Shown here one piece after another: positions 13,394 through 31,020 of a stretch of DNA of 32,168 bases; positions within the stretch are counted from its first letter, which is position 1; every line of letters begins with the position of its first letter. A program made the translations under genes and the position numbers. The notes beneath the pieces are model-generated. The model was not told the origin of the DNA, did no database searches, and saw only the letters and a program-made list of their open reading frames with translations. The stretch is taken from contig JAHJLI010000292.1 in the NCBI GenBank assembly GCA_018821785.1, forward strand, positions 1-32,168, written 5' to 3'. The DNA comes from Pseudomonadota bacterium (GTDB lineage: Bacteria > Desulfobacterota > Desulfobulbia > Desulfobulbales > Desulfocapsaceae).

Positions 13394-14284
13394 ATGATTC
13401 TGCACGGCGAAAGCCTAAATGTCATTTCCAAGGTTATCGGAAAGGCATATAAAGAGCGTGATCCGAAGCCGATCCAGGCTGAAGCCCTTGAGCAGGAGAA
13501 GCTTGGCATGGATTACATCGACATTAATCTTGGCCCAGCTAAAAAAGATGGTCACGAATTAATGCCGTGGGTAGTTCAGGTGGTACAAGAGGTTGTGCCT
13601 AATATGCCCTTGCTGCTCGACACCTCTAACATTGCCGCAATTGAAGAAGGTCTGAAAGTTATAAAGCCTGCGAGTAAGCCGCATATCGTCAATTCGATCA
13701 TGGCCCGTCCGGAGCGATATACTGTTATGCTGCCAATGGCTGCCAAGTACGAGGCTGATATCGTAGCCCTGATGTGGGGACCGGATGGCTTGCCTCGTGA
13801 TGAAAATGAACGAGCTGCCCTTGCTGTAGAGCTTTTGTACGCTGCAAACGAAGCGGGTATTCCCAACGAGAAAATCTGGGTTGACGGTATCGTTACCCCG
13901 GTGAATATTCAACAGGTGCAGTGTGTTTCACTTTTGAATTTCATGATGATGCTGGAAGATATCGCGCCAGGTAGCAAGTCAACCTGTGGCTTATCCAACA
14001 TTTCCAACGGGCCTCCAGTGCATCTCCGGCCAATTCTCAACACCACTTACATGATCATGTTGGAACGGTATGGGATGAAGGCAGTTATTTCCGATCCGCT
14101 CGATACTACCTTGACTGCTGTCGCAAAGGGCAAGCGTCCTGATATCGTCGAAGTGGTCCACCAGGCCATGGACAGCACAGCACCGAGTCTTTCATCTTTG
14201 TCTAAAGAGCTGGGAGATTATGTGAAAACCGTTCGGGTTATCACCGGAGAAAGTCTCTTTTCTGATTCTTACCTGGATATTTAG
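13394..14284 (+). CDS. acsE: Methyltetrahydrofolate:corrinoid/iron-sulfur protein methyltransferase (AcsE)
   Basis: A 296-residue pterin-binding-family TIM barrel, slightly longer than the Moorella enzyme (262). It moves the N5-methyl group of methyl-THF to Co(I) of the corrinoid protein, linking the methyl and carbonyl branches. Typical motifs are visible: YIDINLGPAKKDG, LLLDTSNIAAIE and IVNSIMA, where the Asp and Asn residues contact the pterin in characterised enzymes, then WVDGIVTPV and CGLSNISNG. ATG 13394 has AAAGGAG upstream. The last bases of its stop codon coincide with the first base of a palindromic repeat (copy A). A strong terminator at 14379-14413 ends the transcript. Confidence 0.93.
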   Translation: MILHGESLNVISKVIGKAYKERDPKPIQAEALEQEKLGMDYIDINLGPAKKDGHELMPWVVQVVQEVVPNMPLLLDTSNIAAIEEGLKVIKPASKPHIVNSIMARPERYTVMLPMAAKYEADIVALMWGPDGLPRDENERAALAVELLYAANEAGIPNEKIWVDGIVTPVNIQQVQCVSLLNFMMMLEDIAPGSKSTCGLSNISNGPPVHLRPILNTTYMIMLERYGMKAVISDPLDTTLTAVAKGKRPDIVEVVHQAMDSTAPSLSSLSKELGDYVKTVRVITGESLFSDSYLDI

Positions 14285-14356
14285 TACCTTAGAAATTCGT
14301 TTCTTGTTTTTTTGAATAAATTTCGTGAAGGTATTTATCCAGTCTTCCGGGGTTAG
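14284..14356 (+). repeat. Dispersed palindromic element, copy A
   Basis: Begins at the acsE stop codon. The left arm GTACCTTAGAAATTCG pairs imperfectly with AATTTCGTGAAGGTAT, followed by the tail TTATCC...CCGGGGTTAG. It shares its left arm and tail with copies at 28411 and 30939. Confidence 0.8.
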
Positions 14357-14378
14357 TTTCCGTTCATTTGTTGTTCTT

Positions 14379-14413
14379 AAGCTCCATCCTTTGCGGGATG
14401 GGGCTTTTTTTTT
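14379..14413 (+). terminator. Rho-independent terminator of the acs operon
   Basis: AGCTCCATCC and GGATGGGGCT form a 10-bp stem (one G-U) around a short loop, followed by nine T. This is a textbook intrinsic terminator after acsE. Confidence 0.9.
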
Positions 14414-14489
14414 GAATGGATCATGGTTACTACTCTTCTAGGTGATGGGTAGGACAATATTATTGAATTCCACTGAACAGAGAGATATC

Positions 14490-14774
14490 ATGACTGAAAA
14501 TACAAAAATAACAGGATGGGTTTACGTTTTTGTCTGCGATCCGGGGGGCAGTGAAAGCTTTCTCGGACTCTATAACGAAGAAAAGGATGTTCATTTTATT
14601 CCGGCATTTCGAACCAAGGAAGAGGCAAATGATTGTTTCTTGAATTTACCGCGAGAAAAGGGAAAAAAATACGAGCTGCAGGCGATTCATATCGAAGAGC
14701 TGTATGAGGATGCGATCAAAAACAATTTTGTCGTAACAATGGTTGACCATGAAGGAAAGGTCATTAGCGAGTAA
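14490..14774 (+). CDS. Small conserved-looking protein of unknown function between acsE and cooC
   Basis: A 95-residue acidic, soluble protein starting at ATG 14490 (GAGAG upstream). An in-frame upstream start at 14442 lacks a ribosome site. No known domain is recognised. It begins WVYVFVCDPGG and continues with FIPAFRTKEEANDC and AIHIEELYEDA, suggesting a compact alpha/beta fold. It has no signal peptide or membrane segment and no metal-binding Cys pattern. It lies 47 bp upstream of cooC on the same strand after the acs terminator, so the two probably share a transcript. The position suggests a CODH maturation or regulation role, which is inference only. Confidence 0.7.
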   Translation: MTENTKITGWVYVFVCDPGGSESFLGLYNEEKDVHFIPAFRTKEEANDCFLNLPREKGKKYELQAIHIEELYEDAIKNNFVVTMVDHEGKVISE

Positions 14775-14821
14775 CTTCGAGGTAGAGAGGAAGTAAATTA
14801 CACTGGAAGGAGAATTCCGAC

Positions 14822-15601
14822 GTGAGTCTAAAAATTGCAATTGGAGGAAAAGGCGGGGTCGGCAAGACCACCGTGACGGCGCTTTTGGCCCGTTGTCTAG
14901 CCGCCGATAAAAATAATAAGGTTATTGCTATTGATGCTGACCCGGTGGCTAACCTCGCGGCCGGTCTTGGTATCCCCGAGGATCAGCCGATCACGCCGAT
15001 CTCTCAGTTGACCGAGCTCATCGAAGAAAGGACTGGGGCAAAGGCAGGCACCATGGGAGGTTTTTTCACCCTCAATCCGAAAGTCGACGATATTCCCGAG
15101 CGATTCTCACTAGAGCGTGACGGTGTCAAATTGCTGGTTATGGGCACCGTTCAGAGTGGTGGTTCCGGCTGCATTTGTCCGGAAAGTACCATACTCAAGG
15201 CCTTGATGAATCACCTGGTACTCTTTAGGGACGACATTGTCATAATGGACATGGAGGCGGGAGTGGAGCATCTTGGAAGAGCGACATCGGCTTCAGTCGA
15301 TGCTCTTATTATCGTCGTCAACCCAGGATCAAGAAGTAGGGCAGCGGCGGACAAAATCCGAAAACTTGGCAGCGATATCGGCATTAAAAACATTATCATC
15401 CTTGGAAATCGGGTGAAAGGGGTTGAGGATGAAGAGTTGATTCGCAGCTCTTTGTCTGATTACCAGATTATCGGCTTTCTTCCCGAGCAAGAGGAAATAG
15501 TTGATGCAGATCGGGCGGCGCGAAGGGCCTTTGATGACATTCACACCGCCCCTCCGGAGCTTTTTGCCATAGTTGAAAAACTTACTGCAATGAAAAAATA
15601 A
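14822..15601 (+). CDS. cooC: CO dehydrogenase nickel-insertion/maturation ATPase CooC
   Basis: A 259-residue MinD/ArsA-like P-loop ATPase with a GTG start at 14822 after GGAAGGAG. The deviant Walker A GGKGGVGKTT is at residues 7-16 and the IDADP switch follows around residue 40. A Cys-x-Cys pair (C117, C119 in GSGCICPES) corresponds to the metal-binding, dimer-bridging cysteines of Carboxydothermus CooC1. Such proteins deliver or insert nickel into the CODH C-cluster with ATP hydrolysis. It sits between the ACS-linked acsA and the second CODH gene and could serve both. A strong intrinsic terminator follows. Confidence 0.92.
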   Translation: MSLKIAIGGKGGVGKTTVTALLARCLAADKNNKVIAIDADPVANLAAGLGIPEDQPITPISQLTELIEERTGAKAGTMGGFFTLNPKVDDIPERFSLERDGVKLLVMGTVQSGGSGCICPESTILKALMNHLVLFRDDIVIMDMEAGVEHLGRATSASVDALIIVVNPGSRSRAAADKIRKLGSDIGIKNIIILGNRVKGVEDEELIRSSLSDYQIIGFLPEQEEIVDADRAARRAFDDIHTAPPELFAIVEKLTAMKK

Positions 15602-15643
15602 TATACTCTCCCACTTTGCTGTTCACGCCTCATTTTTTTCGAA

Positions 15644-15683
15644 AAAAGCCGTCTCCAACAAATTAACGTTGGAGACGGCTTTT
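15644..15683 (+). terminator. Rho-independent terminator after cooC
   Basis: AAAAGCCGTCTCCAAC (15644-15659) and GTTGGAGACGGCTTTT (15668-15683) form a perfect 16-bp stem with an 8-nt loop and a T-run. The symmetric A and T runs could allow it to work in either direction. Confidence 0.92.
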
Positions 15684-15736
15684 CCGATTATTGTTTCCTG
15701 ATTCTGCCCTCTATCCTGTTCATCACTCGCATGAAA

Positions 15737-15757
15737 TTGTGCCTTAGCCCGGCACAA
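15737..15757. promoter_or_regulatory. Dyad upstream of the cooS2 promoter (TTGTGCC-N7-GGCACAA)
   Basis: Perfect 7-bp arms separated by 7 bp, ending 13 bp before the -35. The centre is near -59 from the predicted start, a typical activator position. The spacing differs from the CRP/HcpR TGTGA-N6-TCACA pattern, so the regulator is unknown. A CO- or redox-responsive factor is a guess. Confidence 0.5.
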
Positions 15758-15770
15758 AGCAAACACCCTA

Positions 15771-15798
15771 TTGACAATGCCACAATGTGGTATAAAAT
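15771..15798 (+). promoter_or_regulatory. Sigma70 promoter of cooS2
   Basis: TTGACA (15771-15776) is followed after 16 bp by TAAAAT (15793-15798). It lies downstream of the cooC terminator and reads into the second CODH gene, leaving a leader of about 155 nt. Confidence 0.65.
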
Positions 15799-15962
15799 TA
15801 ATAAAATGGGAATATTTCTCAAAAATGAATCAAGTACCTCATGGAAGTATTAAATTTCCGGATGTGTGAGATGCAAGGTTCATGCCCGGTCTCTGTCTGG
15901 TCGGTTGGGTTTTAACAGGCCAGATATTCAGAATAATATTGTATCCTGCATCAGGAGGTATC

Positions 15963-17924
15963 ATGGCAAAACCACTAGAACTTATCAAGGTTGAGGATTT
16001 GACAATATGCGAATCAACCGCACAGATGATCACTAAGGCGAGAAACGATGGGGTGGAGCTTTTCTTTGATCGGGCTCATGCCATCAAGCCATGCCCGATA
16101 GGCGAGCAGTCTGCCTGTTGCAAGCACTGCTCCATGGGGCCTTGTCGAATGAATGTCAACAGCCCGTATGACCGGGTTGGGGTGTGCGGGGCAACGATCG
16201 ACACGATAGTCGCCAGGAATTTTGGCCGAATGGTTGCAGCGGGGACGGCAGCACATACCGATCATGGCATGGCGATGCTTGAACTGTTTCGTGATGTCAT
16301 TAACGGCAAGGTCAAGGATTTTTCCATCAAAGATCCGATCAAGCTCCTTGAGATTGCGACATCTCTCGATATTCCCACAGAAGGGCGTGAGTTGAAGGCT
16401 GTGGCCCTGGACCTGTATAAAGAGCTTGAGAGAACCTACACTCAGGTAGACGGTGAGATCCCCATGATGAAAAGGGTGCCGCCTAAAACCCTTGAACTTT
16501 GGCGGGCAGCCGGCATTGTGCCGCGAGGAGCAATGCGGGAAATCATGGAGATGATGCACCGTACGGCCATGGGTGTTGATCAGGATTACGAAAATATTAC
16601 CAAACAGATATCGCGTACAGCCCTCGCCGATGGCTGGGGTGGATCGATGGTGTCAACGGATATTTCCGATATCCTTTTCGGGACTCCATCGCCGGTCGAA
16701 ATTGAGTGTGATATGGGCGTGTTGAAGGAAGATCAGGTCAACATCATCGTTCACGGTCATGAACCCATTCTCCTGGAAGCTATGATCATCTCGGCAGCCG
16801 ATCCGACCTTGCAGGGAATGGCCAAGGATGCCGGAGCCAAGGGATTGAATCTGGTTGGTATGTGTTGTTCCGGGCTTGATGTCATGTCGCGGCATGGCCT
16901 GCCGCATGCCGGCAATTTCTCAAGCACAGAGGCGGTTTTGGTCACCGGGGCCGTTGACGCCATGACCGTTGACATCCAGTGCATCAAGCAGGACCTGAAA
17001 AAGGTCGCCGATTTTTATGATACCCCGTTTATCACTACCAACTATCGGGCGAAGATCGAGGGAGCTTTGCACATTCAGCTTGATGAACACGAGCCCTTGA
17101 AGTGCACCGATGAGATTATCATCAAGGCGATCACCAGATTTAAAACCCGGAAAAAACCAATTCAAATCCCCAGAAAAGTGAGCCGTGGTGTGCATGGCTT
17201 CTCCTTTGAGTATATCAACTATATGCTTGGCGGTTCGTTCCGTGGCAGCTATACTCCCCTTAATGATAACATTATTAATGGGCGCATTCGCGGGGTAGCC
17301 GGGGTTGTCGGCTGCACAAATCCACGGTCTAAACAGGATTATTCGCACGTAGAACTGGTTAAGGAACTCATTAAAAACGATGTCCTCGTCCTGCAGACCG
17401 GTTGTTCACAAATGGCCCTGGCCAAGGCGGGGCTCACCGGGCCTGGGGCGGCCGCTCTGGCCGGTCCGGGGCTTGCCGAGGTCTGCGAGACAGTCGGGAT
17501 GCCACCGGTACTTGGTCTTGGGGCCTGTGTCGACAACAGCAGAATACTTATTGCTGCCTCAGAGATGGTGAAGGTCGGTGGGCTTGGTGACTCCCTCGCC
17601 GATTTGCCGGCCGCAGGCTGTGCGCCTGAGTGGATGAGCGAGAAAGCCATTGCTATTGGCCATTATTTCGTAGCCTCCGGCATCTATGTTGTTTTTGGCC
17701 ATACCTTTCCCATGACCAAGGGGACCAAGTTTGAAAAACATCTTTTTGAAGATCTTGAAAAACTAGGGTTTGGCAAGTGGGCCGTTGCTGATGATCCAAG
17801 AGAAATGGCGAGACTGATGATTGCCCATATAGATAAAAAACGACAGCAACTGGGTATCGATAAAACGCGGGAGAGAGTTTTGTCGGATATGGCCGACAGG
17901 CGTGGACTTGATGCATCTGCCTGA
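15963..17924 (+). CDS. cooS: Second anaerobic carbon monoxide dehydrogenase catalytic subunit (CooS)
   Basis: A 653-residue paralogue of the CODH at 7546. ATG 15963 is preferred over an upstream in-frame start at 15882 because TCAGGAGG lies just before it and homology begins there. N-terminal cluster cysteines are present (CPIGEQSACCKHCSMGPC, then GVCGAT), as are the C-cluster motifs VHGHEPILLE, GMCCSGLD, VDIQCIKQD, VVGCTNPRS, QTGCSQMA and GACVDNSRI. No residue required for CO/CO2 chemistry appears lost. It has its own promoter and terminator-bounded unit with two small unknown genes downstream. No hydrogenase (CooH) or CooF gene is nearby, so its electron partner is not evident. It could supply CO to ACS, oxidise CO, or replace acsA under other conditions. 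Confidence 0.93.
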   Translation: MAKPLELIKVEDLTICESTAQMITKARNDGVELFFDRAHAIKPCPIGEQSACCKHCSMGPCRMNVNSPYDRVGVCGATIDTIVARNFGRMVAAGTAAHTDHGMAMLELFRDVINGKVKDFSIKDPIKLLEIATSLDIPTEGRELKAVALDLYKELERTYTQVDGEIPMMKRVPPKTLELWRAAGIVPRGAMREIMEMMHRTAMGVDQDYENITKQISRTALADGWGGSMVSTDISDILFGTPSPVEIECDMGVLKEDQVNIIVHGHEPILLEAMIISAADPTLQGMAKDAGAKGLNLVGMCCSGLDVMSRHGLPHAGNFSSTEAVLVTGAVDAMTVDIQCIKQDLKKVADFYDTPFITTNYRAKIEGALHIQLDEHEPLKCTDEIIIKAITRFKTRKKPIQIPRKVSRGVHGFSFEYINYMLGGSFRGSYTPLNDNIINGRIRGVAGVVGCTNPRSKQDYSHVELVKELIKNDVLVLQTGCSQMALAKAGLTGPGAAALAGPGLAEVCETVGMPPVLGLGACVDNSRILIAASEMVKVGGLGDSLADLPAAGCAPEWMSEKAIAIGHYFVASGIYVVFGHTFPMTKGTKFEKHLFEDLEKLGFGKWAVADDPREMARLMIAHIDKKRQQLGIDKTRERVLSDMADRRGLDASA

Positions 17925-18043
17925 AGTGGATCAATAGCTGCAGTATTTCCTGACGGCTCCTGAAAAAGGAAGGGAGACAGCACATCGAATATGCCGCCTC
18001 TCTTTCGGTTGTCTTCTTGGTAAGAATAGAAAGAGGGAAGAAT

Positions 18044-18481
18044 ATGGCGATTTTTAACGGCCGGTACCGGTGGGATGGCACGAAACAGGATGATCTTGAA
18101 CCTGTTGCCTGGTATCCCGGTGCTTATGATGTCAAGATTCTCGACCGTTCCGGAAGAGAGGGCAAGGTGCAGCACTTGAAACCTTTCATCTGCCTGTATG
18201 CACGAACAGGTGAAGGCCAGTCCATTTCCGCCAATCCTGAAAAGTTTGCCAAACGGATTTGCAGCGACTTCTCCCTGGATATAGATCGTGTACTTTGGGT
18301 TGAGGATCTCCTCACCGAAAATGAACGTTATGATATTATTCTCTTCACTCGAACCGGGAAAATGGGGAAGGGTTTCTTTTATCGAGCCGAAAAACGTCGG
18401 GCTCTCGAAGCCGAAGTGAAAATGATTGAACACGCGTTGAATGATCTGGTTGAAGAATCTCAACTCTTAAAGGGGAAATGA
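18044..18481 (+). CDS. Hypothetical protein downstream of cooS2
   Basis: A 145-residue protein from ATG 18044, preceded by GAGGGAAG. No family is recognised. The N-terminal half is mixed (FNGRYRWDG, VAWYPGAYDVKILD, FICLYARTG), then come a VLWVEDLL stretch and a basic/acidic C-terminal helix (EKRRALEAEVKMIEHALNDL). It is soluble, with no signal peptide and only two Cys, so it is not an obvious Fe-S carrier. It lies about 120 bp after cooS2 and 31 bp before another small gene on the same strand, apparently in the cooS2 transcript. It may be an accessory or regulatory partner of the second CODH, but nothing in the sequence proves this. Confidence 0.65.
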   Translation: MAIFNGRYRWDGTKQDDLEPVAWYPGAYDVKILDRSGREGKVQHLKPFICLYARTGEGQSISANPEKFAKRICSDFSLDIDRVLWVEDLLTENERYDIILFTRTGKMGKGFFYRAEKRRALEAEVKMIEHALNDLVEESQLLKGK

Positions 18482-18512
18482 TCGATAGCTGTTTGGCAGG
18501 AGGATATTGATC

Positions 18513-18716
18513 TTGGAGAGAGACCTAATACAAATCAGGTTGCGCGAATTGGAAGAAGAGATTGCTGAAACCATTCGACGACTTCCTGCCCATTCGGTGA
18601 AACCTCCGGTGATGATAGATCTTTTTGCTTTGGAAGATGAACGTGATATGTTGTTGAAAAAGCTGGGGCCGGATGAACCGGCCCCAGCTAGATTAAAAAC
18701 ACTTTCCAAGCTCTAG
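18513..18716 (+). CDS. Small coiled-coil hypothetical protein
   Basis: A 67-residue protein read from TTG 18513, which is 9 nt after AGGAGG. An in-frame TTG at 18507 is only 3 nt from that site and less likely. The sequence is two charged helices (RDLIQIRLRELEEEIAETI, then a Glu/Asp/Lys-rich segment) around a short PAHSVKPPV linker, typical of a helical-hairpin or coiled-coil adaptor. It is the last gene of the cooS2 unit, and its stop codon falls inside palindromic repeat copy E. Function unknown. Confidence 0.5.
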   Translation: MERDLIQIRLRELEEEIAETIRRLPAHSVKPPVMIDLFALEDERDMLLKKLGPDEPAPARLKTLSKL

Positions 18717-18775
18717 TCCCGAAAAATGGGATAAGTCACTTACAAAAAATGTGGGAATATCTTTTGTAAGCGACT
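18713..18775 (-). repeat. Dispersed palindromic element, copy E (minus orientation)
   Basis: On the minus strand GTCGCTTACAAAA pairs with TTTTTTGTAAGTGAC and is followed by TTATCCCATTTTTCGGGACTAG. It fills the space between two convergent genes and overlaps the stop of the upstream one. The strong stem could also act as a two-way terminator. Confidence 0.8.
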
Positions 18776-18777
18776 CC

Positions 18778-21459
18778 TTATTGTTTTCCCACCCGAACGG
18801 CACACACCTTGGTTTCAGGAATCTTAGCCACAGGGTCCAGTGCTCCACTTGTCAATACGTTGGTAGGTGATTCCGCAAAATGAAAGGTCATGGAAACGAT
18901 CCCCGGCGGACAGATCCTGCTCACCCGGGCTTTTGCAGAGACCTGTCCCCTTCGGGAGCTGATATTTACCATTTCTTTATCAGCGATGCCCAGTCTTTTG
19001 GCATCCTTGGGATTGATGTTCAGTTGCTCTTCACTGTCCAGTTGATTGAGGCCGTCCACCCGGCGGGTCATACTGCCGGTGTGATAGTGGAACAGACTCC
19101 GGTCAGTGGTCAGCAGCAACGGATATGCATCGTCTGGAAGCTCGGCAGACTCGCGGAATGAGAGCGGCATCAGTTTTGCGCGGCCACTGGCCGTTGCAAA
19201 GAGCCCCTTTTCGGCTGCATGAAGGATCGGAGTGCCGGAATGATCCTTAGTCGGGCATGGCCATTGAATTCCACCCTGCTCCAGTCGGTCATAGGTGATT
19301 CCGGCATAACTGGGTGTAACCGAGGTGATTTCCGTCATGATTTCCTGAGGATTAGCATAATCAAAGCCTTGGGACTTCATCCTTTTGGCGATGTCACAGA
19401 CGATCTGCCAATCGGGTCTGGCCTGCCCTTTTGGGGCAATAGCCTGACGAACTCGCTGTATTCGTCGCTCCGTATTGGTAAAGGTGCCGTCTTTTTCTGC
19501 AAAGGTGGCTGCCGGCAGCACTACATCCGCCATTTGCGCGGTTTCTGTCATAAAAATATCCTGTACCACCAAAAAGGGAAGCTTTTCCAGAGCAGCTACG
19601 GCATGGGAGGAATTGGCGTCGCTTATGACCGGATTTTCCCCCACCAGATACAGGGACCGGACGGTGCCGTCATAAATCTTGTCAAAAATCGCCGTGTGGG
19701 TCAGGCCCGGCACAGGCGATAATTTCTTTTGCCAGGCGGTTTCAAATTTTTCCATGGCTTTCGGATCATCCACTTTTTGATATCCCGGGTACACATTGGG
19801 CAATGCCCCCATATCACAGGAACCCTGGACATTGTTCTGGCCCCTCAATGGATTGACACCGGTTGAGGGCTTGCCGATATTGCCCGTGACAAGAGCCAGG
19901 TTGCTGATGGCGAAAACATTGTCAGTGCCATGACTGTGTTGGGTAATGCCCATGCAGTAAAGAATGCTGGCCGGGCTGTTCTCGGCGTACATCAGGGCGG
20001 CTTTTTTGATGAGCGCCGCGGGCACCGAGGTGATCTGTTCAACACGGGCCAGATCAAATTCAGAGAGTGATGCAACGAATTCATCGTAGTTATCACACCG
20101 TTCTTTGATAAACGTGGTGTCGGCAAGTCCCTGATCGACAATGACACGGATCATGCCCATGAGCAGAGCTACATCGGTTCCTGGCCGGTGCTGGAGAAAA
20201 AGAGTGGCATGGCGGCACAGATCGATTTCTTTTGGATTGGCAACAATCAGTTTGGCCCCGTTCCGGGCGGCCTTTTTCACCTGCAGGGCAATGATGGGGT
20301 GAGCCTGGGTCGTATTGGTGCCGATGGCCAGAATGGCTTTGGCGCCGATTATTTCATTGATGGAGTTGGTCATTGCGCCGCTTCCCAAAGTGGTGGCCAG
20401 ACCGGCCACGGTTGGGGAGTGTCAGAGGCGGGCGCAGTGATCAATGGTATTGGTCTCCATCACTGATCGAGTAAATTTCTGAAGTAGATAATTGTCTTCA
20501 TTGGTCATACGGGCCGAGGCCAGGGTGGCAAACCCGTCACCCTTACTCTTGGAAAAGTTGTCAGCAATAAGGTCCAAAGCTTCATCCCAGCTTGCCTCCA
20601 CCAACTTTCCGTCTTTTTTTACCCATGGGGTTTTCAGGCGATCAGGGTGGTTGACAAAGTCGTACCCAAACCGTCCTTTGACACAAAGGCTTCCTTTGTT
20701 TACTGGATTGTTCCGATCGCCCCTGACTGACACAATGCGGTCACCTCGGACTCCGAGGAACAGGCCACATCCCACACCGCAGTAAGTACAGATACTGCTG
20801 ACTTCCCGCATTGGAGCCTGAGCGGTTTTGACGGCTAGCGCTCCAACCGGGCACCGGACCACGCACTCACCGCAGGATTCACACCTGGATTGAGCAATGG
20901 GCTTATTGCCAAGGGTTGCGACAATGCAGGAAACTCCCCGCTGCGCATAATCAATGGCGTTGATGTTCTGCAACTCATCACAGGTGCGGATACAGATGCC
21001 GCACATTATGCATTTGCTGTGATCGATGTCGAAAAATGGGTTGGAGGTATCTTTGGGAATAGTACGTACGGAGCGTCTATAGCGTTTCATTCCCTCCTGA
21101 GTGACCCCCACATAGTGGGCCACACGCTGAAGCTCGCAGTCATTGTCTTTTTCGCAGGTCAGGCAGGTCAATGGATGGTATGCCACTAGGAGTTCCACGG
21201 AACTTTTCCGTATCTGCATAACCTCGGGATCTTCGGTGCTGATGGCCATGCCGTCTTGAACCGGCAATTTGCAGGAGATGGCAATTTTTTTATTATCCAC
21301 TTTGACCACGCAGACCCTGCACAGACCGGCAGGTGCCAGATCCGGGTGGTTGCAAAGGTTGGGGATATACAGACCATTGGCGAGGGCAGCCTGCAAGACT
21401 GTCATTCCGGATCTAGCAGTAATCGCAAGTCCATCTATCGTAATGTTGACGTTATTCAT
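18778..21459 (-). CDS. fdhA: NAD(P)-linked formate dehydrogenase catalytic subunit, selenocysteine-containing (in-frame UGA at codon 346)
   Basis: One 893-residue selenoprotein. The UGA at 20424-20422 sits in HCARL-U-HSPTVAGL, the invariant active-site motif of molybdo/tungsto formate dehydrogenases, and both flanks are in the same frame. A SECIS-like hairpin GTGGCC-GGTCT-GGCCAC follows the UGA by 12 nt, with a GGUCU loop as in E. coli fdhF. Domains: NuoG-type 2Fe-2S (C36, C47, C50, C63), a His-Cys 4Fe-4S (H95, C99, C102, C108), two 4Fe-4S (C150-C160 and C193-C203), the catalytic-domain 4Fe-4S (C224, C227, C231 and a later Cys), and the bis-MGD domain. It interconverts CO2 and formate, supplying the methyl branch of the Wood-Ljungdahl pathway. 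Its start, after GGAGG, abuts the stop of the NuoF-like gene. Confidence 0.95.
20393..20409 (-). promoter_or_regulatory. SECIS apical stem-loop of fdhA
   Basis: On the minus strand GTGGCC-GGTCT-GGCCAC forms a perfect 6-bp stem, with 12 nt between the UGA and the stem. The GGUCU loop matches the known SelB-binding loop of E. coli formate dehydrogenase mRNA. Confidence 0.8.
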
Positions 21460-23856: not shown

Positions 23857-23892
23857 GTGGAAAATACGGATGAAAATATCGTGGAAAATACA
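23857..23892. repeat. Three tandem 12-bp repeats upstream of the formate dehydrogenase operon
   Basis: Units GTGGAAAATACG, GATGAAAATATC and GTGGAAAATACA lie head to tail. The first and third share 11 of 12 bases. Direct repeats at near one helical turn, 59-94 bp before the fdh start codon, look like a multimeric activator or repressor site. Confidence 0.6.
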
Positions 23893-23951
23893 GTATCTGG
23901 TCTAAAATGTAAATATCTCTTATCCTAATATCATCATTGTGAATGCTTCTC

Positions 23952-23967
23952 TGGCAGTTGGTATGCT
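23952..23967 (+). promoter_or_regulatory. Sigma54-like promoter site (TGGCAG-N5-ATGCT)
   Basis: The GG at 23953-23954 and GC at 23965-23966 are separated by exactly 10 bp, as in -24/-12 promoters. It reads towards the zinc-ribbon gene at 24136. The match is good but not perfect (consensus TGGCAC-N5-TTGCT). Confidence 0.35.
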
Positions 23968-24135
23968 TTTAGAAAAACAATAAACTAGAAACTTTGATAA
24001 GCGTCAGTTTGATTTTCTCGGTTTTTTGCTTATTGTTTGAGTGACAGATCAGTGGAGTAAAACAATTCATTCTCAGAATGAAGTTATCTGGCTCATGTGG
24101 CAGGAATCTAACAATTAAGGAAAAGGAGATTCATT

Positions 24136-24312
24136 ATGGCAGATCAACATTGTCCAGGATTTGAGAGCAATAAGACTTTGAGTGAAGTGAAAGTCAAATG
24201 TCCGGAGTGCGGCAAAGAATGGGCGGTTTTCTCTGATGAGCTAGAGAAAACCGTCAAATGTTCTGCTTGCAAAGCCAGTTTTGATGCCAAAGCCTGCAAG
24301 ACCAAATGCTAG
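24136..24312 (+). CDS. Small zinc-ribbon protein
   Basis: A 58-residue protein starting at ATG 24136 after AAAGGAGAT. It has two Cys pairs forming a zinc ribbon or rubredoxin-like knuckle (CPECGK around residues 22-27 and CSACKA around 44-49), plus additional Cys at residues 6, 54 and the last position. It may bind zinc or iron. Its function is unknown. It is a single-gene unit with a possible sigma54 promoter upstream and a strong terminator directly after, which supports a real, separately controlled gene. Confidence 0.8.
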   Translation: MADQHCPGFESNKTLSEVKVKCPECGKEWAVFSDELEKTVKCSACKASFDAKACKTKC

Positions 24313-24338
24313 TTCTGCGTTGCCTCTGACCAGCCACC

Positions 24339-24380
24339 GGCCCTATTGAAATGATGCTTTTTCAATAGGGCCATTTTTTT
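24339..24380 (+). terminator. Rho-independent terminator after the zinc-ribbon gene
   Basis: GGCCCTATTGAAA and TTTTTCAATAGGGCC form a long stem around a short loop, followed by a run of T. Confidence 0.92.
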
Positions 24381-24413
24381 CTGATGACTTTTGTCGATAT
24401 ATTTCTCTCTCGT

Positions 24414-24442
24414 TTTACAAATGCGTTTTTATACCATATAAT
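24414..24442 (+). promoter_or_regulatory. Sigma70 promoter of the chemoreceptor gene
   Basis: TTTACA (24414-24419) and a perfect TATAAT (24437-24442) are separated by 17 bp. The leader before ATG 24551 would be about 100 nt. No flagellar sigma28 promoter was seen. Confidence 0.7.
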
Positions 24443-24550
24443 CAGAGATGTCGATCAGGTTTTGGTCGGTGATAAACGTTTACCAAGATACGGCCTTGTG
24501 CTTTTTGGAGACAGTCTTGCAAATTATAACTCGTTGACAAGGAGGCTGTT

Positions 24551-26272: not shown

Positions 26273-26333
26273 TCATCAAGAAAAGAAGAACCTTAATAAT
26301 TGCTCGAAGTATTTAAGGCTCATGGTCCAGCAC

Positions 26334-26364
26334 ATGGCGGTATGGCTTTCATACCGCCATTTTT
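26334..26364. terminator. Two-way terminator between convergent genes
   Basis: ATGGCGGTATG-GCTTT-CATACCGCCAT is a perfect 11-bp stem followed by T's. It lies between the chemoreceptor and the convergent cyclo-ligase gene and can serve both. Confidence 0.9.
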
Positions 26365-26951
26365 TATCTTTTTCCGGAAAGTACCCTGGTTTCTGTGACT
26401 ACCAGATCAAGTATCTGGTCATGTTCACTTAAGGGGGCCTTGTCGATTATTTGCAGTTCAAATGCGAGACCAATGCGGGTGGCTGCCGGATTGCCAGCTA
26501 GGAACCGGTCATAATAGCCACCGCCGTAGCCAAACCTGCCACCCCGTTTGTCAAAAACCGAACCCGGCAACAGGATGGTCTCAATATCTCCCGGGGCAAC
26601 GTGGTTCGTGCGGCAGAGCTCCTCCCTCGGCTCGGGGATCATACAATAGCCTGGTTGAAGGTCCGCCACCGGATTGGTGATGCGGATTGCATCGAGTCTT
26701 TTTTCCCGGACCCGGGTAATGGGCACAGTTACCGTTTTTCCCATATCAATCAGTATATTTATAAGGTCGAAGGTTGCGACCTCGCTGCGAAAACTGACAT
26801 ACACAAAAATCGACTGGCGGGTTCGCACCTGATCAAGGTTCAACAGGACCTGTTGAATTGCCAGTGATTTTACGGCGATCTCTTCCAGGGTGAGTAGGTT
26901 GCGGGCAGCCAAAATGTTTTTTCTCAGGTTAGCGGCTTCAGTCATCTCCAT
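26364..26951 (-). CDS. 5-formyltetrahydrofolate cyclo-ligase family protein
   Basis: A 195-residue protein of normal length for the 5-FCL/YgfA family. It converts 5-formyl-THF to 5,10-methenyl-THF with ATP, returning a dead-end folate to the C1 pool. The family signature GGRFGYGGGYYDRFL lies after LPGSVFDKR in the C-terminal third, and the N-terminal KNILAARNLL segment is usual. ATG 26945 may be the true start instead of 26951, because a GGAG lies about 8 nt before it. In an organism running the Wood-Ljungdahl pathway on tetrahydrofolate, it would support the methyl branch, whose main genes are not in this window. Confidence 0.9.
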   Translation of the reverse strand: MEMTEAANLRKNILAARNLLTLEEIAVKSLAIQQVLLNLDQVRTRQSIFVYVSFRSEVATFDLINILIDMGKTVTVPITRVREKRLDAIRITNPVADLQPGYCMIPEPREELCRTNHVAPGDIETILLPGSVFDKRGGRFGYGGGYYDRFLAGNPAATRIGLAFELQIIDKAPLSEHDQILDLVVTETRVLSGKR

Positions 26952-26989
26952 TTCTCCATTGTGATGGTGGCAAAAAGGGGTGTCAATTA

Positions 26990-27066
26990 GTCACTCACAA
27001 AAAAATATTTGCACGGTTTCTGCGAAGATTTTCGGATATGTGACTTATCCCATTTATCGGGGTTAC
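26990..27066 (+). repeat. Dispersed palindromic element, copy D
   Basis: Left arm GTCACTCACAAAAA, right arm ATATGTGAC, then the shared tail TTATCCCATTTATCGGGGTTAC. It lies between two minus-strand genes. Its stem is the weakest of the five, but the outer GTCAC/GTGAC pairing and the tail are intact. Confidence 0.75.
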
Positions 27067-27084
27067 ATGTTACAGTGGTTGGTT

Positions 27085-28401
27085 TCATAATCGTTGAATG
27101 ATATAGAGAAAAGTGGGCAATCTGCTGAGGATTTTTAGTCGGTTAAATTCAAAGAGACGTGCCCGGGAAGGCTGGTTGAAGGTCAGGGGAGAGAAATAAA
27201 TCGAGCCCTTAGGTTTTGTGCGCACCAGTCTCTCTCTGATTAATTCCATGATTGCCGGATAATGATTAGCCGGCAGTCCTACATCCATAATGAAATTGGC
27301 CGTTATCTCAATTGATCCATAGCGGTCGTTGATCTCTTGCATGCGGGTAAAAGCCTCTTGCACCAATCCGACCGAGATAGGTTTACCGAGTTTGTCGAGG
27401 GTATCTTGGTCAGCGGATTCGAGTCCTATATTGATATAGTGCATCCCCGGCAGTTTTTCCAGATTGGTAAAGAGGTGTTCCGGGGCGTTGACAAGTGAGG
27501 TTGCGGAGCCGAAGAGAAAAGTCTTATGCTCAGCTATATGTGAATCGGCAAAACCGAACTCACGGTACGCCTCCTCAATACCAAAACAGATAAGATCACT
27601 ACCCGCCATCAAAGAATCGTGTTCACCGAGGAAGAGAGCATTGTAGTTGGGCAGATCCGCACCATAAAAGTTTTTCAGGCAGCCGATCTGGTAAGTGATC
27701 TCCATTGCCGTTTTGACTCTGAAAGGAAGGGTGTTTTTTACTTTACAGAATCTGCACTTATGAAGGCAACCTTGGGAAATGGTCAGGGGAATAAGATTGT
27801 AGTCGACATGTCGGGCATCCGGCGGAAGTACGGAGATGCGTCCGCCGATGATTTCTTGCAGCCTTTGCGCCTTTTTTGCCAGGCAGGCAGGGGAGTTGGA
27901 CAATGCATTCACGAGGAAACGGTGAACAGGTTCCGGTGTGTCGGTTATGTTTTCGGCAAGTTGGGTAAGTGTCTGATGCCATGAACTCTTCAAGCCACTG
28001 ATCGCCTTCTCGGAAAATGGATGACCGCCCAAGAGATTATTGGTCGGGTACTCGAAGTTCGGCAGGTAGTATTCGCCGATGGACTCGAATACCCCAGCAT
28101 AACCTCCGGTAGAGTAATAAACCCAGTCGTCACCTTTGGTTCGTTTCAGCCATTCATGGGGGTGTCCCCATTCATTCCCTTTGCCTTTGGCCCGGATAAT
28201 TTCACCACTGAGATTGAAATGGAGTACTGCGCTTGCTGAGCTGATTTCTGAAAATACTCCGCAGTGTAAAGGAAAACTTAACTTTGAGTAGTTGGAGCCC
28301 CCTTTTTTCTCAAGGACGATTTGACAGTTTTTTGTTAAAAAAGAGGCATTCATCAGGGTAGCGAAAATGGGTGTTGGGTGAGTTGTGGCAACTCCGGGCA
28401 T
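27085..28401 (-). CDS. Radical SAM protein of unknown function
   Basis: A 438-residue protein. A radical SAM cluster motif CxxxCxxC is seen at C212, C216 and C219 (SQGCLHKCRFCK), unusually far from the N-terminus. About 200 residues precede it, with no known domain (motifs FPLHCGVFSE and YYSTGGYAGVFES). The downstream barrel shows NIGLESADQDTLDKLGKP, typical of radical SAM strands that contact SAM. ATG 28401 is used. It has an AAGGA site about 11 nt upstream, which lies in repeat copy B; an internal Met at 28353 lacks any ribosome site. The late cluster position suggests a B12-binding or other N-terminal partner domain, but no DxHxxG cobalamin motif was found. The reaction is unknown. Confidence 0.8.
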   Translation of the reverse strand: MPGVATTHPTPIFATLMNASFLTKNCQIVLEKKGGSNYSKLSFPLHCGVFSEISSASAVLHFNLSGEIIRAKGKGNEWGHPHEWLKRTKGDDWVYYSTGGYAGVFESIGEYYLPNFEYPTNNLLGGHPFSEKAISGLKSSWHQTLTQLAENITDTPEPVHRFLVNALSNSPACLAKKAQRLQEIIGGRISVLPPDARHVDYNLIPLTISQGCLHKCRFCKVKNTLPFRVKTAMEITYQIGCLKNFYGADLPNYNALFLGEHDSLMAGSDLICFGIEEAYREFGFADSHIAEHKTFLFGSATSLVNAPEHLFTNLEKLPGMHYINIGLESADQDTLDKLGKPISVGLVQEAFTRMQEINDRYGSIEITANFIMDVGLPANHYPAIMELIRERLVRTKPKGSIYFSPLTFNQPSRARLFEFNRLKILSRLPTFLYIIQRL

Positions 28402-28410
28402 CGATTTATA

Positions 28411-28484
28411 GTTCCTTAGAAATTCGTTTCTTGTTTTGTATCAACGAATTTCGGTAAGGTGCTTATCCCGTTCACCGGGGTTAG
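28411..28484 (+). repeat. Dispersed palindromic element, copy B
   Basis: Left arm GTTCCTTAGAAATTCGTT pairs with AACGAATTTCGGTAAGGTGC, followed by TTATCCCGTTCACCGGGGTTAG. Arms and tail match copies A and C. On the minus strand its left end reads CTAAGGAAC and lies just upstream of the radical SAM start. Confidence 0.85.
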
Positions 28485-28621
28485 CAACATAGCCTCTTTG
28501 GCCTGGTTTTTTGATACTTACAAGATAGCCCCAGGATTGTCAAATCACACGGAATGTGCCGAAACACAAAATATTTTGCCAAGTTAGGCCACGAGCCCGA
28601 CAAGCAAAACTCTGGAAGCCA

Positions 28622-28891
28622 ATGTTTGTGCAGTTAAATTTTGAAAAAATGGAGTTGCCTGTAATCTCTCAAGCCGAGAAGGAGATGCGTCAGGTCAAAA
28701 AAAATCCTTTGCAAAAAAACATACAAAAGGGTTTCTATCAAGAGGTTCCTTGGGTACGGTTTGAAATGAAGACTGGAAAGTGGGTTCGTTTGGCAAAAAT
28801 TTACAGCCCAGTCTTTTCATCCGTGGTTCCTTTGGATTTAAAAAGACGTCAACCAGAGCCTTGCTTTTCATCTAACATTATGAAAATATGA
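28622..28891 (+). CDS. Hypothetical protein, first gene of the dfsP operon
   Basis: An 89-residue basic protein if started at ATG 28622 (weak GGAAG upstream). An in-frame GTG at 28556 would add 22 residues. No family is recognised. Visible features are a Lys-rich middle (VKKNPLQKNIQKG) and an aromatic WVRFEMKTGKWVRLAKI stretch with strand-like pattern. There is no signal peptide or membrane helix, and only one Cys near the C-terminus. Its TGA overlaps the ATG of the next gene (ATGA at 28888), and that gene overlaps the selenoprotein gene the same way. This supports a real, translationally coupled unit. The start site is uncertain. Confidence 0.5.
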   Translation: MFVQLNFEKMELPVISQAEKEMRQVKKNPLQKNIQKGFYQEVPWVRFEMKTGKWVRLAKIYSPVFSSVVPLDLKRRQPEPCFSSNIMKI

Positions 28892-29274
28892 GTGATATTA
28901 TTTCTATTCGAGGGGAAAAGGTAACAGTTGACGATTGTGAGACTGTTATCTCCGTCCCGGAGATTGCTGTAAGTGAGCCTGGCCACATCAAGACCTATTC
29001 GCGCCAAGAGAGTGGGAATGCCAAACATGAGTTCCATGCTCTCGCACAAATGGTGTATTTTCAATTTCAGGATGAAGAGTTGGAGATTATTAAGATCGAT
29101 TCGCCGCTTACAATCAGCGATGGTGCAGAGAGAACCGAACTGCGCGATGGGTTAGTGCTTTGTCGTGATCGGGTGGGAGAATTGCAGGTGCTGGCGATTG
29201 CTGGGAAAAACACAAAAAAGCTGCTTGAGGCGGCCTATCGGTACTGCACCAGGTGGGTTCGTTTGGATATATGA
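28888..29274 (+). CDS. Hypothetical protein, second gene of the dfsP operon
   Basis: A 128-residue acidic protein of unknown function. It is beta-rich, with segments such as IISIRGEKVTVDD, MVYFQFQDEELEIIKI and LQVLAIAG, and no membrane helix. Cysteines (residues 17, about 92 and about 119) are scattered, not in a cluster motif. It begins in an ATGA overlap with the preceding gene, and its stop makes another ATGA overlap with the DUF166 selenoprotein gene at 29271. This tight coupling suggests the three products are made together and may form a complex, which is inference. Confidence 0.7.
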   Translation: MSDIISIRGEKVTVDDCETVISVPEIAVSEPGHIKTYSRQESGNAKHEFHALAQMVYFQFQDEELEIIKIDSPLTISDGAERTELRDGLVLCRDRVGELQVLAIAGKNTKKLLEAAYRYCTRWVRLDI

Positions 29275-29954
29275 AAACGTTGGTGAAGGATGTATCAGTG
29301 AAAGATGATTCTATTGTTGTTCGGCAGCGGCTTATGGTTTTTCAACAAAACGGCAGCGGTGAGCAGAAGATTGCCGGTTTGAGAAAATATGGCGGCGAGC
29401 TTTTCGATCTTGATGTCTTTAACATTGATGAGCCGCTACCTCCGGTTCTAGATAACACCAGCACCTATCTTCCTCAGGATATTTCCTGTGAGTTGGTGTT
29501 GGACTTTTTGCGCCACAATGATTTGTCGACTGATCTTGCTGCTCTTTGTGCCGAAAAAGATATCCCGGTTATTGCCTCGGGTAAAAAGATAACCTGTAAA
29601 GGTTTGGTTACCCCGCCCACCTGATGTGGCCTTCCAAGGCAGGTGGGCCTTGGCAATTATGGTGAACATTTCGGGGCTCCGGAATTTACGGTGGAAATAC
29701 AGGACGGAAAGATCATCGAGGTACAGGTAGTTCGAGGGGCACCATGCGGGGCGACGTGGGAGGCTGCAAGAAGATTGATCGGCCATCCGGTAGAGGATGC
29801 GGTGCGCAAGATCGGTCTTGACACCCAGTTTTACTGTTCGGCAAATCCGGCTGGCTGGGATCCGATTTACGGCAAAAGTCCGGTCCATTTTGCCGGCAAG
29901 ATTCATAGCAAGGAACTGCAGAAAGCAATCGAAAAAGTGCTTTCACTTCTGTAA
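29271..29954 (+). CDS. dfsP: DUF166-family selenoprotein DfsP (in-frame UGA at codon 118)
   Basis: One 227-residue gene read through UGA at 29622-29624. The frame upstream ends TPPT and the frame downstream continues CGLPRQVGLGNYG, giving a Sec-Cys pair in TPPTUCGL. In non-seleno DUF166 homologues I recall a Cys-Cys pair here. The C-terminal half has FGAPEFTVEI, VVRGAPCGATWEAARR and FYCSANPAGWDP, which are DUF166-like. A hairpin with 8-bp outer arms (29615-29622 and 29641-29648) encloses the UGA region and may be the SECIS, though it lacks the usual GGU loop. The activity is not established; the Sec-Cys pair suggests a redox role. ATG 29271 overlaps the previous stop. Reading it as two separate genes would be wrong, because the downstream part has no ribosome site. 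Confidence 0.85.
29615..29648 (+). promoter_or_regulatory. Putative SECIS hairpin of dfsP
   Basis: GCCCACCT (29615-29622) pairs with AGGTGGGC (29641-29648). Inside, GCCTT and AAGGC can pair around a tight loop. The UGA is at the edge of the outer stem. It is a candidate bacterial SECIS of non-classical shape. Confidence 0.45.
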
Positions 29955-29998
29955 AGGGAAGGAAAATATTGCTGGCGTCGTTGCGCGACTACTGAAAG

Positions 29999-30033
29999 AA
30001 AAAGGCCATTGCCTCCAAGGCGATGGCCTTTTC
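29999..30033. terminator. Terminator between dfsP and rubrerythrin genes
   Basis: AAAAAGGCCAT-GCC pairs with GGC-ATGGCCTTTTC around a TCCAA loop. It lies between convergent genes, with A-runs on one side and T-runs on the other, so it can work in both directions. Confidence 0.85.
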
Positions 30034-30034
30034 T

Positions 30035-30610
30035 TTACCAATGCTTCCCAAGTATCGCAAAATACCCCGGTGGTTTAACGCAGGCCGGGCACTTGTCCGG
30101 TGGCGAGGTATCCTCGTGCAGGTATCCGCAGTTGAGGCAGAGCCAGACCACTTTTTCCGCCCGTTTGAAAGCCCGTCCGGAAGCGAGGTTGTCGGCCAGA
30201 GCGCGAAACATCAACTCGTGATGTGCCTCTGCGACGTTGATGGCTGTAAATGTTTCTGCGGCTCTCGGGAAGCCTTCTGCCTCGGCTACCTCTGCAAAAA
30301 CCTTGTACATCTTGTCGTGGACAAAAAGTTCCAGATCTGCTGCGGCGATGAGATTGGCGTGGGTATCTTTAATTACTCCGGACGGGAAAGTTCCAGTAAT
30401 TTCCAGTTCGCCGCCGTTAAAAAATTTAAAAAACCGCAAGCCATGCTCATACTCCTGCTCGGCGGTTTCATCAAAGATCCTGGCTATCTGAATAAGATCT
30501 TCAGCCCTAGCCTGCTCCGCAAAGAAGTTGTAGCGGGTTCGGGCCTGGGCTTCTGCGGAATAGGAGAGAAGCAGATTATGTGCGGTTTTACTGGTGCGAA
30601 AACCGGCCAT
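30035..30610 (-). CDS. Rubrerythrin
   Basis: A 191-residue protein, standard rubrerythrin length. The N-terminal four-helix diiron domain has Glu/His ligand patterns (EAQARTRYNFF, EQEYEHGLRFF, FAEVAEAEGF, NVAEAHHELMF). The C-terminal rubredoxin-like domain binds one Fe through CLNCG and CPAC. Rubrerythrins reduce hydrogen peroxide in the cytoplasm of anaerobes with electrons from ferredoxin or rubredoxin. ATG 30610 follows GGGAGGGG. It is the second gene of an operon, 17 bp after a ferredoxin gene on the same strand, so that ferredoxin is a plausible donor. Confidence 0.93.
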   Translation of the reverse strand: MAGFRTSKTAHNLLLSYSAEAQARTRYNFFAEQARAEDLIQIARIFDETAEQEYEHGLRFFKFFNGGELEITGTFPSGVIKDTHANLIAAADLELFVHDKMYKVFAEVAEAEGFPRAAETFTAINVAEAHHELMFRALADNLASGRAFKRAEKVVWLCLNCGYLHEDTSPPDKCPACVKPPGYFAILGKHW

Positions 30611-30627
30611 GGTGTATGCCCCTCCCG

Positions 30628-30819
30628 TTATTCTTCAAGAGTAATGGCGTTGGCGCCGCATTCAGCCGCAGCCTTCTGTACTATCCCTTCAAGATGCTTG
30701 GGAATTACCTCGAATTTAACTATGGAAAGAAGTTGGTCTTCATCGTACTCAAATACTTCCGGGCAGAGTTTATTGCAATTTCTGTCACCCATACACTGCT
30801 TGGAAATGGTTGCTTTCAT
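30628..30819 (-). CDS. Single-cluster ferredoxin with Asp in the cluster motif
   Basis: A 63-residue ferredoxin. ATG 30819 is chosen because GAGGAG lies just upstream; an in-frame start at 30861 would only add an unrelated leader. The motif CMGDRNCNKLCPEVFE places Asp where the second cluster Cys normally sits (CxxDxxC), and the distal Cys is in ECGANA rather than the usual CP. In Pyrococcus ferredoxin the same Asp change allows [3Fe-4S]/[4Fe-4S] switching. The fold otherwise matches Desulfovibrio-type small ferredoxins. Co-transcription with rubrerythrin suggests a role in oxidative defence. Confidence 0.85.
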   Translation of the reverse strand: MKATISKQCMGDRNCNKLCPEVFEYDEDQLLSIVKFEVIPKHLEGIVQKAAAECGANAITLEE

Positions 30820-30895
30820 TGATTTCTCCTCTTGTAGTTGAAAGATTGAATTGGTAAACAAGTGTTCATTAAAACCACACTTAAGAATGTCACAC

Positions 30896-30924
30896 AGTAT
30901 CTAGCCGGATTCGTGAAATATCAA
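30896..30924 (-). promoter_or_regulatory. Candidate sigma70 promoter of the ferredoxin-rubrerythrin operon
   Basis: On the minus strand TTGATA (30924-30919) and GATACT (30901-30896) are separated by 17 bp, giving a leader of about 70 nt before the ferredoxin start. No obvious PerR box is seen. Confidence 0.5.
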
Positions 30925-30938
30925 GGCAAATGTTACGA

Positions 30939-31020
30939 GTACCTTAGAAATTCTATTTTTTTAAAAAAAGAATTTCCTTAAGGTACTTATCCCGGTTTTC
31001 TGCCAGGTTGCCGAGGTTAG
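30939..31020 (+). repeat. Dispersed palindromic element, copy C
   Basis: Left arm GTACCTTAGAAATTCT and right arm AGAATTTCCTTAAGGTAC form the strongest stem of the family, followed by TTATCCCGG...CCGAGGTTAG. Its tail overlaps the stop codon of the gene at 31017. Confidence 0.85.

What the first reader, a model, noticed from the sequence alone, without database searches (positions are those of the whole stretch)
14284..31020. Five-copy intergenic palindromic element with changing stems and a constant tail
Copies at 14284-14356, 18713-18775 (minus), 26990-27066, 28411-28484 and 30939-31020 share one design: a long stem-loop starting GT and closing AC, then TTATCCC, a short spacer and CGGGGTTA(G). 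Copies A, B and C have one stem sequence (ACCTTAGAAATTC), while D and E have another (GTCRCTTACAAA) with matching right arms. Base pairing is therefore kept while the sequence changes, and the tail stays fixed. The CCCG...CGGG tail can form a second small hairpin. All copies sit at gene boundaries, several overlapping stop codons. This points to a mobile REP/MITE-like element or a structured RNA family that I cannot name.
Basis: partly seen in the sequence, partly recalled or inferred. Interest (0 to 1): 0.75.

Follow-up and report, generated by a model that had tools for sequence, protein, structure and literature searches.

The report
Tiny double-hairpin jumping DNA element
The five look-alike sequences are copies of a roughly 70-letter mobile DNA element made of two hairpins, repeated about 150 times in this bacterium and scattered through related bacteria, that inserts next to the letters TTA (often at gene stop signals) by means of a transposase we could not find.

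Summary
A covariance model built without window copies finds all five and lists 149 genome matches. Across 42 copies from many genomes, 14 of 21 base pairs show changes on both sides while the second hairpin stays nearly fixed. Relatives lack the element at ten aligned sites; two are base-exact on both sides. Anatomy: TTA–hairpin 1 (GTACC…GGTAC)–TTA–hairpin 2 (TCCCG n5 CGGGG)–TTA, beginning with an element-borne G. The left junction is an in-frame TAG stop in 26 of 140 intergenic copies, against 35 of 2800 background TTAs. It is a non-autonomous mobile element, best (not surely) explained as a single-strand, IS200/IS605-like miniature element. It is not a GTAG-REP, and has no terminal inverted repeats. 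Only 2 of 78 Y1/Y2 transposase loci held carry a copy, so the mobiliser is unknown. No Rfam family reached its gathering score in the window.

The parts
14284..14352 (+). Copy A, type-1 stem (G..GGGG); left TTA 14281-14283, right TTA 14353-14355; decayed pairing
   Evidence: model hit 14279-14357; orthologous site without the element in two relatives
14282..14284 (+). TAG stop codon of ORF 13394-14284 (Pterin_bind); TA from the target, last G is the element's first base
   Evidence: orthologues in the two relatives also end in TAG
18717..18774 (-). Copy B, type-2 stem; left triplet GGA, right triplet CTA (18714-18716); starts 3 nt after the stop of ORF 18778-20409
   Evidence: model hit 18712-18779; folds at z -6.68 as DNA
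26990..27062 (+). Copy C, type-2 stem; left TTA 26987-26989, middle TTA 27045-27047, right TTA 27063-27065
   Evidence: model hit; absent from the aligned relatives (edges imprecise)
28411..28480 (+). Copy D, type-1 stem; left triplet ATA, middle TTA 28463-28465, right TTA 28481-28483
   Evidence: best window hit 28406-28485; absent from one relative (edges imprecise)
30939..31016 (+). Copy E, type-1 stem; left triplet CGA, middle TTA 30987-30989, longer loop in hairpin 2, right TTA 31017-31019
   Evidence: model hit 30934-31021; absent from two relatives (edges imprecise)
31017..31019 (-). TAA stop codon of ORF 31017-32003 formed by copy E's right TTA

Best explanation
A non-autonomous mobile DNA element, mostly 68-77 nt, that moves as folded single-stranded DNA in the manner of IS200/IS605-type (HUH, single catalytic tyrosine) elements, using a transposase supplied in trans. 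SHOWN: relatives lack it at the same intergenic places; where edges are exact it sits at a pre-existing TTA, leaving TTA-hairpin 1-TTA-hairpin 2-TTA; its first base is G and it ends GGGG(TTA); pairing of hairpin 1 is kept by changes on both sides; hairpin 2 and the central TTA are nearly fixed. INFERRED: hairpin 1 is the recognised folded structure; the central TTA acts as the guide, because it can pair (T-A, T.T, A-T) with the left target TTA and with the right TTA and so would choose both cleavage sites; the fixed hairpin 2 is the other recognition part. Because the element supplies G after TTA, landing in a T-TA(G/A) stop codon leaves a TAG stop, so such insertions would be harmless, which would explain the copies at stop codons. 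The mobiliser is not identified.
For: Sites without the element, base-exact on both sides for A and L014, exact on the left for L076; the model finds no copy at the aligned sites in 14 relative loci (its hits there lie elsewhere). In L001 and L066 the relative has TTAA where the filled right end also reads TTAA, so the base after the right TTA follows the target. Boundaries at the triplets in 150 full copies: left TTA in 135, right TTA in 131, G after the left triplet in 143 (this filter favours intact ends; with anchors that leave the ends out, but are noisier, the left four-mer is TTAG in 90 of 210, next TGAG and TTTC 7 each). Central triplet TTA in 140 of 150. Left triplets TCA/TGA stand beside a right TTA in 5 of the 7 young copies with a non-TTA left triplet, 4 independent since L040 and L048 share a left flank. 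Covariation score 0.402 against 0.106 shuffled, 0 of 500. A copy beginning at the TTA of an older copy: clearest L026 and L165 among 7 regex candidates; nested composites L147/L169. Stop-codon enrichment.
Against: No transposase gene was found bounded by these ends: 2 of 78 Y1/Y2 loci held carry a copy (L029, L385). TnpB has no match in 8 of 10 carriers, a weak sub-cut-off match in G000 and a clear one in G063. One young copy, L095, has TTG at both ends, as a target duplication would give; two other young copies (L365 TAA/TTG, L072 TTA/CTG) fit neither simply; right triplets also vary in older copies (19 of 150). In near-identical type-3 copies the base after the right TTA is not G in 11 of 44, above the body mean of 3.6%, but two body positions vary as much (29% and 27%). 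The replication-strand orientation expected of single-strand transposition is weak: 66 of 108 (p 0.026), and 43 of 75 (p 0.25) where skew is strong. The guide role is read from sequence only.
Confidence: 0.47

Rival explanations
1. A MITE-like element mobilised as double-stranded DNA by a DDE transposase that makes a 3-bp TTA target duplication.
For: TTA flanks both sides in 119 of 150 copies; L095 carries TTG at both ends; the exact sites without the element hold one TTA (G001 for A, G004 for L014).
Against: The ends are unrelated (GTACC.. and ..CGGGG), so there are no terminal inverted repeats; 5 of 7 young copies with a non-TTA left triplet (4 independent) read TCA or TGA left and TTA right; the central TTA and fixed hairpin 2 have no role in this model.
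Confidence: 0.22
2. A REP-type palindrome spread by a RAYT (TnpA-REP) gene of the host, with an atypical foot.
For: Y1_Tnp genes occur in every carrier searched: G000 (6), 7 of 7 and 10 of 10. Atypical structures beside some Y1 subclasses are described in PMC6006769 (passages).
Against: No GTAG/GTGG foot; the Y1 loci held are not flanked by the element; by eye, not by a tree, no one Y1 group was common to all carriers among the proteins extracted.
Confidence: 0.18
3. A retained structured RNA or terminator-like regulatory element that happens to be multicopy.
For: Changes on both sides of pairs in hairpin 1; positions at gene ends.
Against: Absent from orthologous intergenic regions of close relatives; patchy and high copy number; near-identical copies in different loci; no Rfam match at gathering level in the window, and of three carrier loci only L163 gave matches, all below gathering score.
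Confidence: 0.05
4. An RNA-mediated (SINE-like) element copied by a reverse transcriptase that recognises the constant 3' tail.
For: Constant 3' end with variable 5' part; matches lacking the left end outnumber those lacking the right end (35 against 12 of 232, but most loci were fetched by the tail).
Against: Both ends are present in most matches (172 of 232 by the sorting); the truncation count is biased by how loci were fetched; no reverse transcriptase was looked for.
Confidence: 0.05

Closest known systems
IS200/IS605 family and its non-autonomous derivatives
   Same: Hairpin ends, fixed short target on the left flank, asymmetric ends without inverted repeats, possible guide-to-cleavage-site pairing (rule as described in PMC6006769 and PMC8266576, passages).
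   Different: No tnpA or tnpB found inside or beside it; only about 70-75 nt; hairpin 1 abuts the target without a separate left guide; one central TTA would serve both ends; a triplet rather than a tetranucleotide is conserved.
REP elements with RAYT/TnpA-REP (REPtrons)
   Same: Short, high-copy, extragenic palindromes, often just after stop codons (PMC12306157, passages); Y1 genes in the same genomes.
   Different: No GTAG/GTGG foot, two hairpins and a longer unit, TTA junctions defined by sites without the element, no Y1 gene flanked by copies among the loci held.
CGTC-tagged repeats (PMC3733652, passages)
   Same: Palindromic repeats without a flanking dedicated transposase.
   Different: Tag is CGTC there; here TTA triplets and a fixed second hairpin.
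Class 3 and subclass 2.6 Y1-associated atypical structures (PMC6006769, passages)
   Same: High-copy atypical hairpins in bacterial genomes.
   Different: Those lie beside their Y1 genes, class 3 with a CnGA foot; here TTA and no such gene found nearby.
Multicopy intergenic sequences of Geobacter genomes (PMC2700814, PMC2996986, passages)
   Same: Palindromic intergenic repeat families in deltaproteobacteria.
   Different: The sequences are in supplements I could not read, so identity is untested.

Membership tests
REP/RAYT (REPtron) | GTAG or GTGG tetranucleotide at the 5' foot of the hairpin | tested here: not met
   Foot is TTA|G; central TTA
REP/RAYT (REPtron) | RAYT gene flanked by copies | tested here: not met
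   78 Y1/Y2 loci held (66 Y1, with up to about 1.5 kb on each side), 2 with a copy; loci were returned for 30 of 39 rows and 30 of 60
IS200/IS605-type element | Inserts 3' of a fixed short target, no inverted-repeat ends | tested here: met
   Sites without the element and end profiles
IS200/IS605-type element | No target duplication (left flank target-borne, right end element-borne) | tested here: inconclusive
   Of 7 young copies with non-TTA left triplets 5 agree (4 independent), L095 disagrees, L365 is neither
IS200/IS605-type element | Autonomous relative with tnpA sharing the same ends | tested here: not met
   No left/right pair bracketing a transposase in the held loci scanned (L239-L346 left out); the IS200-type TnpA loci inspected carry other hairpins or none like these; partial search of the genomes only
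IS200/IS605-type element | Single-strand cleavage by a HUH enzyme | not testable with these tools
   Needs biochemistry
MITE (DDE type) | Terminal inverted repeats | tested here: not met
   Ends GTACC.. and ..CGGGG; alignment A2
MITE (DDE type) | Target-site duplication | tested here: inconclusive
Rfam RNA family | Covariance-model match above gathering score | tested here: not met
   0 matches in the window; of three carrier loci only L163 gave matches, all below gathering score
Integron attC site | Paired R boxes and integrase | not tested
   Considered from memory only; the TTA junctions do not seem to fit

The most novel reading that the evidence does not exclude
A separate class of single-strand mobile element in which one central TTA triplet, shared by two hairpins, addresses both ends and the target, while the first hairpin is free to diverge between lineages because it co-evolves with an undiscovered trans-acting enzyme and the second hairpin stays universal; its leading G makes it a stop-codon-safe inserter.
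Probability: 0.25. Interest if true: 0.72.

Novelty: new variant of a known kind. Interest (0 to 1): 0.5.

Why it matters
Short extragenic palindromes are widespread but their movement is rarely caught. Here junctions, sites without the element and the target triplet can be read to the base, stems covary across several bacterial groups while a tail stays fixed, and stop codons are a preferred landing place. That makes it a clean test system for how such repeats move without a neighbouring transposase, and it annotates about 150 intergenic features in one genome and more in its relatives.

Tried and rejected
Y1 transposase as a resident partner: 6 in G000, 39 rows in 7 carriers, 60 rows in 10 more. 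Loci were held for 66 of these; a copy lay within the locus in 2 (L029, L385). My own estimate from G000's density (149 in 5.47 Mb) would put about half a copy in its six Y1 loci by chance, so one is no signal. The IS200-type TnpA loci inspected have other end hairpins. IS91-type Y2 genes are in 7 of 8 carriers; 12 loci checked, no copy. TnpB: 2 of 10 carriers, one below the cut-off. Elements with a gene between the two halves: two candidate pairs, L016 and L154, neither convincing (L239-L346 left out). Replication-strand bias: weak. An early reading that the element always ends in TTAG was dropped because L001 and L066 have TTAA in filled and relative sites; note that L001's right flank does not align beyond the first bases. 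An idea that L001 turned a TAA stop into TAG was dropped because its gene lies in another frame (my reading of the sequences; the frame printed is not the conserved one). A first stop-codon count lost 28 of 66 copies through poor anchoring and was replaced. Viral contigs 0, plasmids none, phages none. At site C a third relative (G003, L258) has unrelated sequence of similar length, not the element. Candidate sites with larger gaps (rows L054, L056, L062) were not followed, and B gave no usable orthologous site. Literature, listings only unless said: REP-associated tyrosine transposase + Deltaproteobacteria + palindromic, 0 papers; CGGGGTTAG, 34 papers with 20 listed, unrelated by title; IS200 + TTA + hairpin + Geobacter + miniature, 0; others (29 papers, 25 listed; 165, 15 listed; 19, 15 listed; 3) named no such family in titles or abstract starts. 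Papers seen as passages: PMC6006769, PMC3733652, PMC8266576, PMC12306157 (its table counts 2,529 REPs in Desulfotalea psychrophila without showing sequences in what I saw), PMC3739170, PMC2996986, PMC2700814. Supplements were not readable. On rechecking, the count of exact sites went from three to two and the independent discordant triplets from five to four; I lowered the single-strand reading from 0.50 to 0.47 and raised the duplication rival from 0.20 to 0.22.
Full report
What was checked. The five copies are at the stated places. A and C are decayed and as single-stranded DNA fold no or little better than shuffles; B, D and E fold strongly. A covariance model built from 42 other copies finds all five. 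The window is contig C41 of a 5.47-Mb, 315-contig genome. A same-genus relative, G008, has a contig of 357,964 bases, the length of the record of Desulforhopalus sp. IMCC35007, so the organism is probably Desulforhopalus-like (inference).

Extent. The exact tail pattern has 26 places in the genome and 0 for the reversed control. The left arm with up to one mismatch has 135, control 6. The model lists 149 matches at E up to 0.01, with only 150 of 3841 first-look candidates scored, so this is a lower bound; the list holds four of the five window copies, B being missed there. The tail occurs in 11 of 57 genomes, the own genome included. A stricter pattern occurs in 8 of 395 genomes drawn from the phylum, own included. 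No copy was found in viral contigs, plasmids or phages with the queries used.

Structure. In 42 copies from many genomes 96.8% of cells pair (shuffled 80.4%), 14 of 21 pairs have changes on both sides, and the covariation score is 0.402 against 0.106, with 0 of 500 shuffles reaching it; sliding by one column drops it to about 0.08. Thirteen of these 14 pairs lie in hairpin 1. Hairpin 2 (TCCCG n5 CGGGG) is nearly fixed. Lineages carry different stems: GTACCTTAGAAATTCG.., GTGCCTTACAGATTATTTTC.., GTACCTTAGAAATAATATTCTGC.., GTAAGTTAGAAATTATTTTCTGC.., GTCACTTACAAA... Longer variants of about 110 nt whose stem appears, by eye, to branch occur in a few genomes.

Mobility and junctions. Sister genomes lack copy A: the filled site reads GGATATTTAG-element-TTAGTTTCC, the relative G001 reads GGATATTTAGTTACC and G004 GGAAATCTAGTTACC. 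L014 is also exact on both sides; L076 on the left only; L001 and L066 align less well, and there the relative has TTAA where the filled right end has TTAA. For C, D, E, L067 and L095 the element is absent but the edges are imprecise. That makes ten sites aligned, all without the element in the relative; the model finds no copy at these places in the 14 relative loci rechecked. B could not be assessed. Thus the element starts with its own G after a target TTA and ends GGGG followed by TTA. Among 150 full copies out of 232 unique matches, left TTA occurs in 135, right TTA in 131, both in 119, and G follows the left triplet in 143. The set contains the model's training copies and the match filter favours intact ends; with anchors that leave the ends out the left four-mer is TTAG in 90 of 210, with more misplacement. 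The base after the right TTA is G 98, A 35, T 12, C 5, against T 1132, A 728, C 621, G 298 after background non-ORF TTAs, so either TTA|G is the preferred target or the G is partly element-borne. In 44 near-identical copies this base differs from G in 11 while the body averages 3.6% mismatches, though two body positions vary as much. I read it as mostly target-borne. The central triplet is TTA in 140 of 150. Elements that begin at the right TTA of another copy are clearest in L026 and L165 (among 7 regex candidates), and nested composites occur in one MAG (L147, L169).

Target duplication or not. In 55 young copies (up to 3 substitutions) 7 have a non-TTA left triplet. Five read TCA or TGA left with TTA right, of which L040 and L048 share a left flank and count once; one reads TAA left with TTG right; one (L095) reads TTG on both sides. 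One further copy (L072) reads TTA left and CTG right. The first group fits a target-borne left triplet and an element-borne right triplet, as in IS200/IS605 elements; L095 fits a duplication. I lean to the former without certainty.

Stop codons. Of 140 full copies not inside an ORF, 26 have the left junction TAG as the in-frame stop of the upstream ORF (background 35 of 2800 TTAs), and 18 have the right TTA as the TAA stop of the opposing ORF (background 143 of 2800) (ORFs called mechanically). At the 26 sites the next base is G or A in 23, so the original codon would also have been a stop. Window copies A and E are examples. Target preference and selection against harmful insertions could both contribute.

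Mobiliser. Among 78 Y1 and Y2 transposase loci held, 2 carry a copy; TnpB was found in 2 of 10 carriers, one of them a weak match below the family cut-off; no gene-carrying version was found among the held loci scanned. The enzyme is therefore inferred to act in trans, or to be lost from the genomes seen, or to be of a kind not searched for.

How it probably works. On the single strand the central TTA can pair with the left TTA to extend hairpin 1 and with the right TTA to extend hairpin 2 (T-A, T.T, A-T). Published work on IS200/IS605 and TnpA-REP describes cleavage sites chosen by pairing with a short guide at a hairpin foot (PMC6006769, PMC8266576, passages). The same logic with a single shared guide would explain the three TTA triplets, the asymmetric ends and the free divergence of hairpin 1. 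This step is inference.

Novelty. No Rfam family reached its gathering score and the paper searches made named none in their listings, but supplements of the Geobacter papers could not be read and the REP survey PMC12306157 counts REPs in a related genus without sequences in what I saw, so an unnamed earlier sighting is possible. I rate it a new variant of a known kind: non-autonomous palindromic mobile elements.

Noticed in passing
window 7507-9573 and 15882-17924: Two ORFs share DNA repeats (224 nt at 75% identity, 95 nt at 73%); the second matches Prismane/CO dehydrogenase in Pfam.
   Followed up: no
window 15644-15683: Perfect 16-nt inverted repeat with 8-nt loop just after ORF 14822-15601, terminator-like.
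   Followed up: no
window 28888-29274 and 30023-30841: Two ORFs between copies D and E have no Pfam match at E up to 1e-5.
   Followed up: no
L106, L118, L123, L126, L165, L046: Long (about 110 nt) variants with the same tail and a stem that appears to branch into two inner hairpins.
   Followed up: partly
L147 and L169: Composite in one Syntrophobacterales MAG: a second element, with a different hairpin 2, apparently inserted at the central TTA of a first one.
   Followed up: partly
L154 7230-7304: The constant tail follows a quite different, long stem (GGTTCAGGCATCCGGCC..GGCCGGATGCCTGAACC).
   Followed up: no
L093 1079-1530 (G000:C246): Degenerate IS200-type transposase fragment followed within about 120 nt by a truncated type-1 left half.
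   Followed up: no
L040 and L048 (both in G018): Two copies share the same left flank but have different right flanks, as after a one-sided duplication or recombination.
   Followed up: no
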